Shown here in pieces: positions 769 to 31,363 of a stretch of 35,855 nt of DNA (position 1 is its first letter; every line of letters starts with the position of its first letter). The position numbers and the translations under genes were made by a program. Under the pieces are notes generated by a model. The model was not told where the DNA came from and searched no databases. It worked only from the letters and a program-made list of their open reading frames with translations. This DNA is from a virus, in IMG/VR virus record IMGVR_UViG_3300032116_000674, positions 1-35,855 of that record, one strand, 5' to 3'.

Positions 769-1692
769 ATGTCGTATCCTGTTTCCCCCGGTCGCCCGAA
801 CTACTCGGGCAACTTTATCCCCGAAATCTGGTCGGGTAAGCTGATCGAGAACTTCTACGATGCCACCGTGCTCGCGGCGATCTCGAACACCGACTACGAA
901 GGCGAAATCCGTCAGTTCGGCGATACCGTCAACATCCGCACCACCCCGGAGATCACGATCCGCGACTACGTCAAGGGTCAGGCTCTGACGGTTGAGAACC
1001 CCGACAAGCCGAAGCTCCAGCTTGTCATCGACAAGGGCGAATACTTCGCTTGCGTCGAAGACGACGTGGATAAGGTGCAGTCGGACATCAACCTGATGGA
1101 CACTTGGTCGAAGGACGCCTCGGAGCGTATGAAGATCAAGATCGACCAGCGCGTTCTGACCGACCTGCTGCCGGACATCGCCGCCACCAACAAGGGTGCC
1201 ACTGCCGGTGAGCAGTCGGCCTCGTTCAACCTCGGCACCAACGCTTCGCCGCTGACCGTGACCAAGGATGGCGCTGGTGGTACCACCTCGGTGATCGACC
1301 TGATCGTCGATATGGGCACCGTGCTCGACGAAGCTAACGCTCCGGAAGCCGACCGCTTCCTCGTCATTCCTGCCAAGATGGCTGGTCTGATCAAGAAGTC
1401 GGAACTGAAGGACGCTTCGCTGACCGGTGACAGCCAGTCGATTGTCCGCAATGGCCGTCTGGGTATGGTTGACCGGTTCACCCTCTACGTGAGCCACAAC
1501 CTGTACGTGTCCTCGGGCAAGTACAACCTGATTGCCGGTCACAAGATGGGCTTCACCTTCGCCTCGCAGATGACCAACATGGAAACCATCCGCTCTGAAA
1601 CGACCTTCGGTAACATCATCCGTGGTCTTCAGGTGTATGGCTACAAGGTCGTCAAGGGCGAAGCGCTCTCGACCGCTGTGGTCCAGTTCTGA
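769..1692 (+). CDS. Major capsid protein (HK97-fold type)
   Basis: A 307-residue protein preceded by AAGGAA about 10 bases before the ATG. It opens with a short arm, then NFIPEIWSGKLIENFYDATV and the YEGEIRQFGDTVNIRTTPEI segment, which resembles the start of coat proteins from short-tailed environmental phages. The C-terminal third (residues about 210-300, GRLGMVDRFTLYVSHNL to VYGYKVVKGEAL) matches the usual pattern of such coat proteins, where a surface-exposed loop is followed by a strand that returns to the P domain. The codon choice is highly uniform and GC-ending, as expected for the most abundant virion protein. It lies between scaffold and decoration candidates, and a strong GC stem-loop follows 8 bases after the stop. 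The HK97 fold is inferred from family resemblance, not computed. Confidence 0.88.
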   Translation: MSYPVSPGRPNYSGNFIPEIWSGKLIENFYDATVLAAISNTDYEGEIRQFGDTVNIRTTPEITIRDYVKGQALTVENPDKPKLQLVIDKGEYFACVEDDVDKVQSDINLMDTWSKDASERMKIKIDQRVLTDLLPDIAATNKGATAGEQSASFNLGTNASPLTVTKDGAGGTTSVIDLIVDMGTVLDEANAPEADRFLVIPAKMAGLIKKSELKDASLTGDSQSIVRNGRLGMVDRFTLYVSHNLYVSSGKYNLIAGHKMGFTFASQMTNMETIRSETTFGNIIRGLQVYGYKVVKGEALSTAVVQF

Positions 1693-1699
1693 TCATGAT

Positions 1700-1717
1700 G
1701 GGGGGCTTCGGCCCCCC
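1700..1717 (+). terminator. GC stem-loop with TTCG loop after the capsid gene
   Basis: GGGGGGC, loop TTCG, GCCCCCC form a perfect 7-bp stem. The C(UUCG)G closure is one of the most stable RNA tetraloops known. It begins 8 bases after the capsid stop codon. No T-run follows immediately, so it may act as an attenuator or a 3'-end protecting or processing element rather than a full intrinsic terminator. Confidence 0.6.
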
Positions 1718-1724
1718 GTCTAGC

Positions 1725-1739
1725 CAAAAAGGATTTTTG
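1725..1739 (+). promoter_or_regulatory. AT hairpin presenting the ribosome site of the next gene in its loop
   Basis: CAAAAA, GGA, TTTTTG is a perfect inverted repeat with a 3-base loop. The Shine-Dalgarno AAGGA (1729-1733) spans the stem top and loop, just before the ATG at 1742. The stem is weak, so it may be coincidental. Confidence 0.3.
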
Positions 1740-1741
1740 AA

Positions 1742-2194
1742 ATGGCTGCTTACACTGACTCGCTCGGCTTCAACAAGGGCACCGCCGCGTACCCGGACAC
1801 TGCGTGTGTCTACAAGTTCGAAGTCGAACTCGACTTCGCCGAGATCATTGCCGCTCGTTCTGCTGCTGGCGCTACCGCGCTGGCCGCTACCGACACCCTT
1901 CAGGTGATCAACCTCCCGGCTTATTCGGTGGTCCTCGCTGCCGGTCTGAACGTGGTCTCTGTCGAGTCCACCAACACGACCGCGACGTTTGACTTCGGGT
2001 ATACCGGGGGTACTCCGGCTGCTGCCAACGTGTACTGCGATGACTTCGCGTGCACCTCGGTCGCTATGGACTCGGATAACCTCGCCAATCCGACCGTTAT
2101 CAAGTCGGCTGACACCATCGACCTTCTGCTGAACACTGCGGTTCCGACCGACTGCGTTCTGAAGGCGTGGGCCATCGTCGCAAACTGCGGCTAA
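1742..2194 (+). CDS. Putative capsid decoration protein
   Basis: A 150-residue protein starting 49 bases after the capsid stop. The sequence is beta-rich and low in charge, with many Ala, Thr, Val and Asp residues, several aromatic residues and four Cys (residues about 22, 100, 104 and 139, with another Cys near the end). It has no membrane segment or signal peptide. Small beta-rich proteins directly after the coat gene commonly bind the outside of the capsid as cement or decoration proteins, and that is the best guess here. Codon use is as strongly biased as in the coat gene, which suggests high expression. No specific family is recognised. Alternatives are a head-fibre base or a minor structural protein. 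Confidence 0.6.
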   Translation: MAAYTDSLGFNKGTAAYPDTACVYKFEVELDFAEIIAARSAAGATALAATDTLQVINLPAYSVVLAAGLNVVSVESTNTTATFDFGYTGGTPAAANVYCDDFACTSVAMDSDNLANPTVIKSADTIDLLLNTAVPTDCVLKAWAIVANCG

Positions 2195-2200
2195 CGGTTT

Positions 2201-2245
2201 GGGGCTGCTGGCTGGATTGGGAGTTCCCGGTCGGAAGGCAGCCCC
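2201..2245 (+). terminator. Stem-loop after the decoration gene
   Basis: GGGGCTGC (2201-2208) pairs perfectly with GCAGCCCC (2238-2245). The interior can fold further (CTGG with CCGG, GGG with CCC). A pyrimidine-rich tail TCCTTCTT follows, which would suit an intrinsic terminator or attenuator. Its last two bases are shared with the hairpin that covers the next ribosome site. Confidence 0.55.
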
Positions 2246-2259
2246 TCCTTCTTAGGAGG
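2244..2259 (+). promoter_or_regulatory. Hairpin sequestering the AGGAGG ribosome site of the 2265 gene
   Basis: CCTCCT (2244-2249), loop TCTT, AGGAGG (2254-2259). The full consensus Shine-Dalgarno is one arm of a perfect 6-bp hairpin, and the ATG lies 5 bases downstream. The hairpin overlaps the 3' arm of the upstream stem (2238-2245) by two bases, so the complete forms of both cannot exist together. This would allow translation control, but no ligand or mechanism is visible. Confidence 0.5.
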
Positions 2260-2264
2260 TTATC

Positions 2265-2594
2265 ATGGGTGTTTATCGCGGTATTACTCAGGACAATGTG
2301 ACTATTCAGGGCGGCACGCTCTATAACGTCACACTGTCCACCGCCACCGTCACTGGTGGCACGCTCGCAGGTACGCTCACTGGCAATGTTGATGCTACGA
2401 CTGGTTACATCCAGCTCCGCACCAACACGGCTGCTGAGATCGCTGCCAAGGCTAACGCAGTGAACACGACCGGTAAGGCTGCTGGGACTATCGTCTTCGA
2501 TACGACCAACAGCAAGATCAAGGTTGCTACAGGCGCAACTGACACATCGACTTGGGTCGATGCTGATGGTACAAACGCCGTCACTCCGTCGTAA
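2265..2594 (+). CDS. Small beta-rich virion protein (fibre-like)
   Basis: A 109-residue protein with a perfect AGGAGG 5 bases before the ATG. The first 45 residues are a Thr/Gly-rich repeat (TIQGGTLYNVTL, TVTGGTLAGTLTG) of the kind seen in beta-solenoid phage fibres. The second half, IVFDTTNSKIKVATGATDTSTWVDA, resembles the short closing domain often found in phage fibre-like proteins. It has no Cys and no membrane segment. Its place between the decoration candidate and the YadA-like fibre suggests a capsid or tail-fibre component, perhaps a head-fibre base. Its start is controlled by the hairpin that contains its ribosome site. No family name can be given with confidence. Confidence 0.55.
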   Translation: MGVYRGITQDNVTIQGGTLYNVTLSTATVTGGTLAGTLTGNVDATTGYIQLRTNTAAEIAAKANAVNTTGKAAGTIVFDTTNSKIKVATGATDTSTWVDADGTNAVTPS

Positions 2595-2596
2595 CA

Positions 2597-2619
2597 GATG
2601 GGGGCCTCGTGCCCCCATC
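2597..2619 (+). terminator. 9-bp stem-loop after the 2265 gene
   Basis: GATGGGGGC (2597-2605), loop CTCGT, GCCCCCATC (2611-2619) form a perfect 9-bp stem starting 2 bases after the stop codon. There is no T-run. It is the third GC stem-loop after three consecutive virion genes. A GTG at 2609 lies within it and is not used here as a start. Confidence 0.6.
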
Positions 2620-27100: not shown

Positions 27101-28477
27101 GGTATGGCCAACATGAAGGCCAACACGGCAGAGTTCTACGATGCCGTGGCCAAGAGTAAGGAACTCCAGACCAAGTACGGACTGGCAGCACACGAGGCCG
27201 AGTTCATCGCCCGCGAAATCCGTGAGGGTGCCATGATCCCGGCGCAGACCAACGCGCTGATCAACACTGCTCGTGGTCAGATATCGTCGGGCTTTGCCCG
27301 CAAGTTCATCGATGGGTGGATGCTGCCTTTCAACCTGACTGAACAGGCTTCTCGCCGCACGCTGGGTCTCACTGCCTATCGGCTTGAGTATGAGCGGCAG
27401 ATTGCCGGTGGTCGTAGCGAGACCAAGGCACAGGAAGCGGCTCGCCGCTTTGCTGTCGATGCCCTGAGCCTGACCATGGGTGAGTACTCAGTGCTCAACC
27501 GCCCGCCTGCATGGCGTTCGGGTATCCAGTCGTTCCTCTATATGTACAAGGTCTTCCCGACCACTTCGATCCAGTTGTTCTCGAACCTGTCGCGTGGCGG
27601 CAAGATCGCCATGCTGGCATCTCTGTGGATGCTCTCCGGTTTGCAGGGTCTGCCGTTCGCTGAGGACCTCGAAGACCTGATCGACACACTGGCTCAGGCG
27701 CTTGGGTTCAAGGTCGGTAGCATCCGTATGGAGATCGCCAAGTTTGTTGATGGCGTCTTCCCCGGCATGTCGCCGTACTTCCTACAGGGTGTGGTCAACT
27801 CGGCAGTGCCCGCTGATATCGCTGGACGTGTCTCGCTGGGCAACGTCTTCCCCGGCACGGGTATCCTCCTGTCTGGTGCGGACGTAGGTCGTGAACTTAC
27901 CGACATCGCCGGTCCTGCGCCTTCGGCCCTGATTGGCTCGGCCCAGTTCTTTGCTGACCTGATGCGTGTACCGTTCTCCGACCGTATCCAGTTGGTCGAT
28001 GTGGCTCGTGAGGCTCCGGTGACTATGCTCCGTGCAACCGGTGATGCTGTTGCCTACGCCAAGTCAGACGCCATTGTGGACCGCCGTGGTTATGTCGTGG
28101 CCGATGATGCCAACGCTGGAGTTATCGCTGCTCGTTTGTTGGGGTTCTACCCGAGCGAGGCTGCGCAGCAGTACAGCGCGATCCGCGTCGCTACCCGTGT
28201 GACAGACTACCAGCGAGATGTCGTGGCAGGCTTCCGCCAAGCATGGATCAAGGCCACGATGGAGGGCAACACTGGCCGCGCACGCGAGATCGAGCAGGCA
28301 GTGGATAGCTGGAACAAGGGGGCCAAGGGCACCGGGCTTGAGATCGCTGACTTCCGTCGCCGGTCCATGCGTGCGCTCAAGGAAGCCCAGCGACCGGCCA
28401 AGGAGCGCACCCTGCGTACTGTCCCCAAGGCTGGCCGCGAAGATATCGAGAGGGCATTCGATACCCTCTCGTACTAG
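21140..28477 (+). CDS. Giant polyvalent virion protein (2445 residues)
   Basis: Regions in order: fibrous start (1-200); hydrophobic Gly/Ala-rich segments (about 205-290 and 335-430) with an EGATELGQEALL stretch; a Pro/Gln/Lys-rich disordered part (about 430-790); a helical part; and a zincin-like site LAHETLGHFGLRG with His1150, Glu1151 and His1155 (HExxxH spacing, not classic HExxH), followed by SKAEAVEEYLSDFAG. Next come long helical domains (about 1250-1900). The C-terminal domain (about 1925-2445) contains NRPPAWRSGIQSFLYMYKVF and WMLSGLQGLPFAEDLEDLID, resembling the LPD38-type end of phage polyvalent proteins. It is last in the late operon, where T7 places its largest ejection protein, so injection with the DNA is likely. 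Activity of the HETLGH site is unproven. Its stop lies in a CTAG shared with the opposing gene. Confidence 0.8.
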   Translation: MAQAGLSILNPLAAPAGGSDLNPLVNRTPTKVTGLDALQQSVASIQAMGEAARAQVRVPEIAAPQVQQAQPTIAFSPSRGEFFVQGRTFSKDDAQSAIESEALLGQPGAPLPTGDWVPVDPQAYAGYLQGIKEPSLGTLFSKGFGRGVDVSQLLAGRGLQFLGAEETGGRIVAQQMEDLRQTTPYERQFSDIESGRDAIEWFVANLGAQGPNLLESIAVAAGGAAAGTLSGGPGLGTLGGAIAGLAGKSSFKQAVLAAARKQAAGEVLDAAERKILRSAAGIAGATVASYANNIATGTADIYGEMREQGADPDDVNARMTALLGSLPYAALETLPEFLLAGRVLGGVAAPRAMAAGTSLPRRGAELLRRGAVGGAIGGAAEGATELGQEALLLGLSDQDLSKPENVQRLIESFAAGAAIGAPLGGVANLKGRKPADLLGGANPEPLALPAPPKQLPAPLKRLPYYGPEQGELPLIGGGGVAPTPIAPTAVPTQPEMFEGVDLGIAPEGPSPQLELPFAAGVAPVAPTTEIQDVLPFESGLAPFRYAQPVVPTGTLADNPVLRALQQREQEAQMAAQRQAEFEQAQGARVPVTGLNALQQRLAESQPFLEVVGTEGTLLPEPTYGATPAQAAEEWRALAGRGRPKPFANFLPEIQNQWIDALNMEQAGELSRDDLRQIRTELVQAENEARLTKTPPRTVVTGAITPTPTPPTGGKPSGLKKPKATAVSPAQQPATRGEALKRPVGRAVAAPTGKPSAKPAAKAKKAAAPVQKQPGEVVQVLKKGKTEKRKPRTQAPTLAEDRGNMTDADRIDAAIRFAEEATTRADRDDVRDAYYDILELAFFERLSSGTVEGRKAIQTKARDFLKGPISKWHQPSLAKAFRDIMLREDTLPADGPWFQFMLDNDLTKAFPDKAKDKITNLDKIKDPALRAQAEEMFAIEPQPAVTKKATYESKPVLTDTALSKLAALLASNLKVFNLERPFTFSQSSMSKEEYPSLPFALEDLFAETNEADRDTLINGYPLKDYFTADGEAKFDKVGDLFTPSAKKEDEGRFALASFNQPDRADPAVGKLRMAISRFVSKLATKPKVAVFKNQADMKAKNPALYRKAVAARPEGDFDTALAAGYSFGDGNVVIFTDRIANQQHLNFVLAHETLGHFGLRGIIPANKFNAAMEAIYNASPAIRSDVDIAVANGQSKAEAVEEYLSDFAGVLDTSVVARVWNAIKGALNKLGIKFGDEMVRYVLKHSRSYVRSGKSSMFDVAKVFGDLQDVEYGKGYASTGRFSTVGDIYADNRAAELVRDHMANAPLNWEQAWTTIKGAVGNSTDRFDRFKAEFLSLANFRSRLNPGLNRLEEILEAARDLTSSIRVSSNERNAEVFDAAVFGKYFGVTDEQTDSINKLMYASQRLAASKVKSLRDLKGPPLYEFKDGELVPNQPEIDRLTKQGMVTFEQARDGFTYEVQLPDGTTREERFAGIPGLTKESIEWRGYVSLRETVNEVELLLLRAHYQSRFEDQNIAFKQFDELVENKRLTNAERDLLRRIIRTYHDLYTADITFDELGYPKLDTNAMQNGNDFVVAINKALTLGQQRDFDEVARFFEGKAADDMVAKLREFKTRLKIGADNKYTIQNRVKQLGVLEVSNTDADLYTRRTLATGYTPLLREGQFQIRVEVVNPRTGKVVRLADAYREQLIYSQVEKESEALELAAGINDIFKDKTYEVDAYSPDAGEYVKQTVVFRAVSETALDAIAGPPELNLNEFVYGLRQLDIVLTPKEVERVVTALTRQNSSARNRLLRAFTPGADPDAIKAISRHVDSRASTISKTIMRPQLGELMNLSMESTQRLWNGDARLLADLKTAAENTNLSVEERAIAQREYARYKYMYEQTNPKGKPKRTNQFYNEASRTVSFLDENRDVTESNFESGEVVSRVRAATSIMQLGGSIATGALNLISAYTNGLPFLASYNPRNGFGGGFGIGPSVAQFHIAAKQVGALGMANMKANTAEFYDAVAKSKELQTKYGLAAHEAEFIAREIREGAMIPAQTNALINTARGQISSGFARKFIDGWMLPFNLTEQASRRTLGLTAYRLEYERQIAGGRSETKAQEAARRFAVDALSLTMGEYSVLNRPPAWRSGIQSFLYMYKVFPTTSIQLFSNLSRGGKIAMLASLWMLSGLQGLPFAEDLEDLIDTLAQALGFKVGSIRMEIAKFVDGVFPGMSPYFLQGVVNSAVPADIAGRVSLGNVFPGTGILLSGADVGRELTDIAGPAPSALIGSAQFFADLMRVPFSDRIQLVDVAREAPVTMLRATGDAVAYAKSDAIVDRRGYVVADDANAGVIAARLLGFYPSEAAQQYSAIRVATRVTDYQRDVVAGFRQAWIKATMEGNTGRAREIEQAVDSWNKGAKGTGLEIADFRRRSMRALKEAQRPAKERTLRTVPKAGREDIERAFDTLSY
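28447..28471. terminator. Stem-loop at the convergent gene junction
   Basis: CGAGAGGG (28447-28454), a 9-base loop, CCCTCTCG (28464-28471): perfect 8-bp stem inside the last codons of the giant gene and 3 bases before the shared CTAG. A stem works for RNA of either strand. There is no T-run on either side, so it is a candidate bidirectional block or transcript end rather than a textbook terminator. Confidence 0.5.
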
Positions 28478-31341: not shown

Positions 31342-31363
31342 GTGGGGGGATTGCTCCCCCCAC
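31342..31363 (-). promoter_or_regulatory. GNRA-capped 9-bp stem-loop before the primase gene
   Basis: On the minus strand: GTGGGGGGA, GCAA, TCCCCCCAC. A perfect 9-bp stem is closed by a GCAA (GNRA) tetraloop, starting 4 bases after the HTH stop and ending 15 bases before the primase ATG. There is no T-run. It probably stabilises or processes the mRNA or attenuates reading into the primase gene. Confidence 0.6.

What the first reader, a model, noticed from the sequence alone, without database searches (positions are those of the whole stretch)
2201..2264. Two competing RNA hairpins, one hiding a consensus ribosome site
The 8-bp stem GGGGCTGC/GCAGCCCC (2201-2208/2238-2245) and the 6-bp hairpin CCTCCT-TCTT-AGGAGG (2244-2259) share bases 2244-2245. 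The second one buries the full Shine-Dalgarno of the 109-residue virion gene. Completing one stem shortens the other by two pairs, so the leader could work as a translation switch tied to transcript length, ribosome passage through the preceding gene, or temperature. The two could also stack with slightly shortened stems.
Basis: partly seen in the sequence, partly recalled or inferred. Interest (0 to 1): 0.62.

Follow-up and report, generated by a model that had tools for sequence, protein, structure and literature searches.

The report
Phage hairpin capped by DUF3800-RNA motif
The hairpin after a phage head gene is not a convincing translation switch; its tip is a 20-letter RNA motif that recurs in unrelated phages and also begins a small bacterial RNA made next to a nuclease-like gene (DUF3800), which suggests that phages copy a host RNA.

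Summary
Both hairpins exist exactly as described, and 2201-2245 is the strongest local fold in the window. They are not competing states: the three ways of sharing bases 2244-2245 differ by under 1 kcal/mol, the ribosome site stays mostly paired in all of them, and opening stem 1 strengthens hairpin 2.

The unexpected part is hairpin 1. Its outer stem covaries (6 of 8 pairs), but its tip, GGATTGGGNGTTCCCRGTCG, hardly changes. That 20-mer recurs in 116 viral stretches (5 for the reversed pattern), in dozens of unrelated contexts: behind major head genes of several families, in terminator loops, and as an insert in phage tmRNA. In bacteria it is the 5' hairpin of a predicted ~65-nt RNA with its own promoter and covarying terminator, lying at the 3' end of a DUF3800 gene. 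I found no Rfam model for this RNA and no printed copy of the motif. The motif-bearing phages tested lack DUF3800.

Best reading: a stem-mounted copy of a DUF3800-partner RNA hairpin, probably a decoy or mimic. The RNA homology is well supported; the decoy function is inferred. No expression or binding data exist.

The parts
2201..2208 (+). 5' arm of stem 1 (GGGGCTGC)
   Evidence: compensatory changes in 6 of 8 pairs
2209..2213 (+). TGGCT, 5' side of the internal loop, shared (as TGGCT or TGGCA) with L242, L406 and L407, which lie in other contexts
2214..2233 (+). Cap motif GGATTGGGAGTTCCCGGTCG, a 7-bp hairpin with loop AGUU; same as the 5' hairpin of the bacterial DUF3800-linked RNA
2234..2237 (+). 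GAAG, 3' side of the internal loop
2238..2245 (+). 3' arm of stem 1 (GCAGCCCC); its last two bases are shared with hairpin 2
2244..2259 (+). Hairpin 2 CCTCCT-TCTT-AGGAGG, weak (-3.6 kcal/mol with 4 bp, -9.5 with 6 bp)
   Evidence: arm not conserved
2254..2259 (+). Shine-Dalgarno AGGAGG of the 109-aa gene
1742..2194 (+). 150-aa gene whose 3' untranslated region carries hairpin 1; no PHROG or Pfam match
2265..2594 (+). 109-aa gene, weak tail-fibre-like hits only
769..1692 (+). Major head protein, PHROG 267 family
1697..1720 (+). Plain TTCG-loop hairpin at the previous gene junction, no T run
2597..2619 (+). Plain GC hairpin at the next gene junction, no T run

Best explanation
Hairpin 1 is a display stem that presents a 20-nt RNA hairpin module, G-GAYUGGG-N(G/A)YU-CCCRGUC-G, in the 3' untranslated region of a late head-region message. 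The module is the same as the 5' hairpin of a predicted small RNA that many bacteria encode at the 3' end of a DUF3800 gene, whose protein has a predicted RNase-H-like fold. Shown by computation: the module is real, structured, recurrent in unrelated phage RNAs, genetically linked to DUF3800 in bacteria, and present without DUF3800 in the phages tested. Inferred: the DUF3800 protein recognises this hairpin, and phages place copies in RNAs likely to be abundant (major head gene 3' ends, tmRNA, tRNA arrays) to occupy or neutralise it, as an RNA decoy or antitoxin mimic. Hairpin 2 is a weak SD-covering helix formed by the pyrimidine tail; at most it lowers initiation slightly, and it is not the conserved function. 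I put about 0.9 on module identity with the DUF3800-linked RNA and about 0.35-0.4 on the decoy function.
For: Recurrence: of 116 viral sites matching GGATTGGGNGTTCCC, 43 continue with RGTCG (0.23 expected); the full pattern hits 116 viral stretches and its reversal 5; 47 distinct contexts, 30 outside ORFs, nearest upstream gene on the same strand in 25 of 31. Unrelated carriers: major head genes of PHROG 371 (L361; the same 303-aa gene lies upstream in L380 and L394, and a 303-aa gene in L249 and L396), PHROG 283 (L216), and the window's head region with PHROG 267. It is an insert relative to both Rfam tmRNA models in phage tmRNA. DUF3800 link: 75 bacterial stretches; 54 of 75 sites have DUF3800 within 3 kb, always on the opposite strand. 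Survey of 274 genomes of one class: this DUF3800 clade in 11; all 9 whose gene ends could be read carry the hairpin, with pair-preserving changes. The bacterial RNA has 10 pairs with changes on both sides, 0/500 shuffles, and a -10 box mostly ending 9-13 nt before the motif, absent in viral copies. Prediction test: the NAYU loop first seen in bacterial DUF3800 loci was then found in 44 viral stretches, in tmRNA inserts and terminator loops as well as next to DUF3800. No DUF3800 in 11 motif-bearing phage records. The DUF3800 model (pLDDT 92) is nearest to RNase HII and HI.
Against: No experiment shows that DUF3800 binds this RNA, that this DUF3800 type is toxic or defensive (no PADLOC match), or that the window's host has it. 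The rarer bacterial loops AACG/AAUG were not found in phages beyond one probable chance hit. Not all viral copies are near head genes. The test that the motif sits on a closing stem is only moderate (15 of 46 contexts against 7.6 expected, P 0.002; the NAYU set alone is not significant). High expression of the carrier RNAs is assumed from gene type, not measured. The searches began from an exact pattern, so variability of the motif is underestimated, and IMG/VR includes prophages.
Confidence: 0.42

Rival explanations
1. Generic 3'-end hairpin: every junction of this operon carries a GC hairpin after the stop codon that protects or partly terminates the upstream message; the cap sequence is incidental.
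For: All 62 distinct homologous junctions have a hairpin right after the stop codon, mostly GGGGGC-TTCG-GCCCCC; the neighbouring junctions 1697-1720 and 2597-2619 do too. This is probably true of the outer stem.
Against: It does not explain an almost invariant 20-nt cap, including tandem U.G pairs, in unrelated phages, tmRNA and bacterial RNAs. T runs are poor, with 5 or more T in the first 8 bases in only 10 of 55 loci.
Confidence: 0.25
2. Translation switch or attenuator: stem 1 and hairpin 2 control initiation of the 109-aa gene.
For: SD mostly paired; own-tail pairing slightly better than swapped tails.
Against: Coexisting structures, little temperature response, wrong sign for coupling, arm lost in natural relatives.
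Confidence: 0.08
3. The module binds some other host or phage factor (RNA-binding protein, nuclease, antitermination factor); phages and the DUF3800 locus both use it independently, or the host RNA is itself a decoy for a phage factor.
For: Many phages have the motif without DUF3800; positions beside terminators and in tmRNA fit RNA processing or antitermination.
Against: In bacteria the motif tracks this DUF3800 clade closely; most bacterial genomes surveyed have no match even at 2 mismatches, so no universal host RNA carries it.
Confidence: 0.22
4. DNA element: a mobile or recombination site that inserts into terminators, tmRNA and gene ends.
For: Insert-like position in tmRNA and presence/absence at one junction, e.g. 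L086 against L097.
Against: Pair-preserving changes, own promoter and terminator in bacteria, one exact copy per genome in six genomes, strand bias relative to the gene.
Confidence: 0.06

Closest known systems
DUF3800-associated RNA motifs (Rfam families such as DUF3800-I and DUF3800-IX)
   Same: Structured RNA found next to genes with a DUF3800 domain (association noted in PMC10910872; families listed in PMC11701678).
   Different: No Rfam 15 family matches the bacterial RNA found here or the window; copies of its 5' hairpin occur in phage RNAs without DUF3800.
Pseudo-ToxI of phage PhiTE
   Same: Phage-encoded RNA resembling a host RNA partner of a protein; molecular mimicry (PMC3475682).
   Different: PhiTE uses repeats resembling ToxI of the type III toxin-antitoxin pair ToxIN and was tested experimentally; here it is one hairpin in 3' untranslated regions and tmRNA, with an untested DUF3800 partner.
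aba element of BstA
   Same: A short sequence belonging to the locus of a defence protein frees phages that carry it (PMC8585504).
   Different: aba appears to act as DNA; the present element looks like RNA.
Intrinsic terminators after phage head genes
   Same: GC-rich hairpin after a head-region gene, pyrimidine-rich tail.
   Different: Weak T run and an invariant cap.
SD-sequestering hairpins and RNA thermometers
   Same: SD paired with an upstream arm.
   Different: Not conserved, coexists with stem 1, little temperature response.

Membership tests
Translation switch / RNA thermometer | Two mutually exclusive structures of similar energy | tested here: not met
   Both form together in the best folds; base-sharing states within 1 kcal/mol
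Translation switch / RNA thermometer | SD opens on a trigger such as temperature or ribosome passage | tested here: not met
   Prediction only: SD core stays paired at 10-45 C; loss of the 5' arm closes the SD further
Translation switch / RNA thermometer | SD-pairing arm conserved in homologues | tested here: not met
   L084/L093, L094-L096 and others lack it
Intrinsic terminator | GC-rich stem after the gene | tested here: met
Intrinsic terminator | Run of T directly after the stem | tested here: inconclusive
   TCCTTCTT has 5 T of 8; relatives vary from 1 to 6; the scan did not list the site
Known DUF3800 RNA families (Rfam) | Match to a covariance model | tested here: not met
   No match in window or bacterial loci
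Known DUF3800 RNA families (Rfam) | Lies next to a DUF3800 gene | tested here: not met
   True of the bacterial RNA, not of the window or the related phage records tested
Phage RNA antitoxin mimic (pseudo-ToxI type) | Sequence and structure shared with the host RNA partner | tested here: met
   20-nt hairpin shared, with pair-preserving variants in bacteria
Phage RNA antitoxin mimic (pseudo-ToxI type) | Host locus is a toxin or defence system neutralised by the RNA | not testable with these tools
   No PADLOC match; needs an assay
Phage RNA antitoxin mimic (pseudo-ToxI type) | Expressed during infection | not testable with these tools
   No RNA data for this phage

The most novel reading that the evidence does not exclude
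A previously undescribed bacterial two-part system (DUF3800 RNase-H-like protein plus a ~65-nt two-hairpin RNA) is countered by many unrelated phages, which independently display a copy of the RNA's first hairpin in head-gene 3' untranslated regions, terminator loops and tmRNA.
Probability: 0.35. Interest if true: 0.9.

Novelty: new variant of a known kind. Interest (0 to 1): 0.68.

Why it matters
DUF3800 proteins are widespread, and RNAs linked to them have been catalogued (Rfam) without, to my knowledge, a known function. A hairpin shared by a DUF3800-linked RNA and by RNAs of unrelated phages gives a concrete, testable partner and points to a phage-host conflict. If true, it would add RNA mimicry built into capsid messages and tmRNA to the known counter-defence tactics.

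Tried and rejected
Nucleotide search of phage records with 1800-2800 and protein search with the 150-aa gene: no match. Rfam on the window: none. Weak Rfam hits on the bacterial RNA (C0465, PsrR1) were below the gathering scores and rejected. The first DUF3800 model, from 5 sequences, was poor (pLDDT 37) and was replaced by one from 39. AACG/AAUG-loop variant in phages: one hit, judged chance. Partial matches to PAK_P3/KPP10 phages and mycobacteriophages were rejected as not carrying the motif. Sequence search against solved structures: no useful relative. Text search for the motif letters: no paper. A conserved protein motif (the 3' end of some DUF3800 genes encodes PTGNPQST) was considered and rejected as the sole cause, because the motif persists where the gene stops before it and in non-coding contexts. 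The 2017 paper that I recall as the source of the DUF3800 RNA motifs is not held.

Full report
OBSERVATION. Hairpin 1 also holds an inner 7-bp stem, GATTGGG/CCCGGTC, with loop AGTT. The stretch from 2201 is the most stable 50-nt fold on the + strand of the window, and 2180-2290 folds better than 196 of 200 shuffles.

CONTEXT. The window is a tailed-phage fragment whose head protein at 769-1692 belongs to PHROG 267 and matches those of the HMO-2011 group and of Rhizobium phages at about 30-54% identity. The next genes encode a 150-aa protein without family matches and the 109-aa protein. Three successive junctions carry GC hairpins (1697-1720, 2201-2245, 2597-2619).

HAIRPIN 2 AND THE SWITCH. 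With stem 1 at 8, 7 or 6 pairs, hairpin 2 has 4, 5 or 6 pairs, with totals of -31.7, -31.3 and -30.8 kcal/mol: the structures stack, they do not exclude each other. The core of the SD is paired in all of them and at 10 to 45 C. Removing the 5' arm of stem 1 makes hairpin 2 stronger. Among 62 distinct homologous junctions every one has a hairpin after the stop codon, but the SD-pairing arm is inconsistent. Several relatives keep stem 1 and AGGAGG with ATACTC in place of CCTCCT. Tails pair slightly better with their own SD than with other loci's, so mild damping of initiation is possible.

HAIRPIN 1 IS TWO THINGS. In 15 sequences the outer stem has compensatory changes at 6 of 8 pairs (0 of 500 shuffles) while the inner stem is nearly invariant, including two adjacent U.G pairs (the sequences were collected by the motif, so part of that invariance is built in). 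That is the pattern of a scaffold carrying a sequence-specific tip.

THE TIP RECURS. The full pattern gave 116 stretches, the reversed control 5. They fall into 47 distinct contexts, 30 of them outside ORFs, with the upstream neighbour on the same strand in 25 of 31. Several lie directly behind major head genes of other families (PHROG 371 and 283). Others are loops of terminator-like stems (L164, L182, L216, L264, L378). In phage tmRNA the motif is an insert relative to both Rfam models. Contexts have more closing-stem energy than partner-swapped controls (P 0.002), though only about a third are clearly stem-mounted. Within the window's own relatives the motif is polymorphic: 14 of 60 junctions, at least 6 changes on a weakly supported tree, 2 forced by well-supported branches; L097 lacks it where its close relative L086 has it.

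THE BACTERIAL COUNTERPART. The exact motif occurs in 75 stretches of bacterial genomes, where by my estimate about 2 would be expected by chance. There it follows a promoter (the -10 box mostly ends 9-13 nt upstream) and is followed by a covarying terminator hairpin (10 pairs changed on both sides in the whole RNA, 0 of 500 shuffles). This predicts a ~65-nt RNA lying at, and often antisense to, the 3' end of a DUF3800 gene: 54 of 75 sites have that gene within 3 kb, always on the opposite strand. In a survey of 274 genomes, all 9 readable members of this DUF3800 clade carry the hairpin, with changes such as GATCGGG/CCCGATC and GGTTGGG/CCCGGCC that keep pairing. No Rfam 15 model matches. The DUF3800 model is confident (pLDDT 92) and nearest to RNase HII and HI, at modest TM-scores; an RNase H fold for another DUF3800 protein is reported in PMC10910872.

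TESTS OF THE LINK. A loop variant (NAYU) seen in bacterial DUF3800 loci was then looked for in viral contigs: 44 stretches, 21 beside DUF3800 and others again in tmRNA inserts and terminator loops. A rarer variant (AACG/AAUG) was not found convincingly. Eleven motif-bearing phage records, the window among them, have no DUF3800.

INTERPRETATION. Shown by computation: a structured 20-nt RNA module is shared between a DUF3800-linked bacterial RNA and RNAs of unrelated phages. Inferred: DUF3800 binds it, and phage copies act as decoys or antitoxin mimics, comparable in kind to pseudo-ToxI of PhiTE (PMC3475682). The system has not been shown to be toxic or defensive and has no PADLOC match. Rival readings are a generic 3'-end hairpin, another binding partner, or a DNA element; they are ranked in the rivals section.

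LIMITS. The searches used exact patterns, so diversity is underestimated. Gene calls around viral sites were simple ORF calls. There is no expression or host information for the window's phage. Structure and energy statements are predictions.

Noticed in passing
L301:5432-5496 and 51 further distinct bacterial loci: Predicted ~65-nt two-hairpin RNA with its own promoter, convergent with a DUF3800 gene; no Rfam 15 match in the loci tested.
   Followed up: yes
L190, L218, L237, L238, L268, L484, L487, L496, L517, L520; bacterial MAG L299: 20-22 nt motif inserted shortly upstream of the tag reading frame in tmRNA or tmRNA-like genes (confirmed against Rfam models for L218 only).
   Followed up: partly
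L470 (Xanthomonas phage Rb1), L472 (Acinetobacter phage Alexa), L473 (Pseudomonas phage pPa_SNUABM_DT01): The motif (exact in Rb1) or close variants lie in unannotated structured stretches, in Rb1 and DT01 beside tRNA or tmRNA genes; possible unnamed phage RNAs.
   Followed up: partly
L172, L424, L258, L364, L403: In this group of related contexts the motif follows a tRNA-anticodon-arm-like sequence (CAGGACCTGAAATCCTG, seen in L424); ARAGORN finds no tRNA there.
   Followed up: no
window 1724-1737: SD of the 150-aa gene lies in a weak AAAAAGGATTTTT hairpin.
   Followed up: no
window 31342-31363 and 28447-28471: GC-rich inverted repeats near gene boundaries, the second at the end of the 2445-aa gene facing the minus-strand genes.
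   Followed up: no
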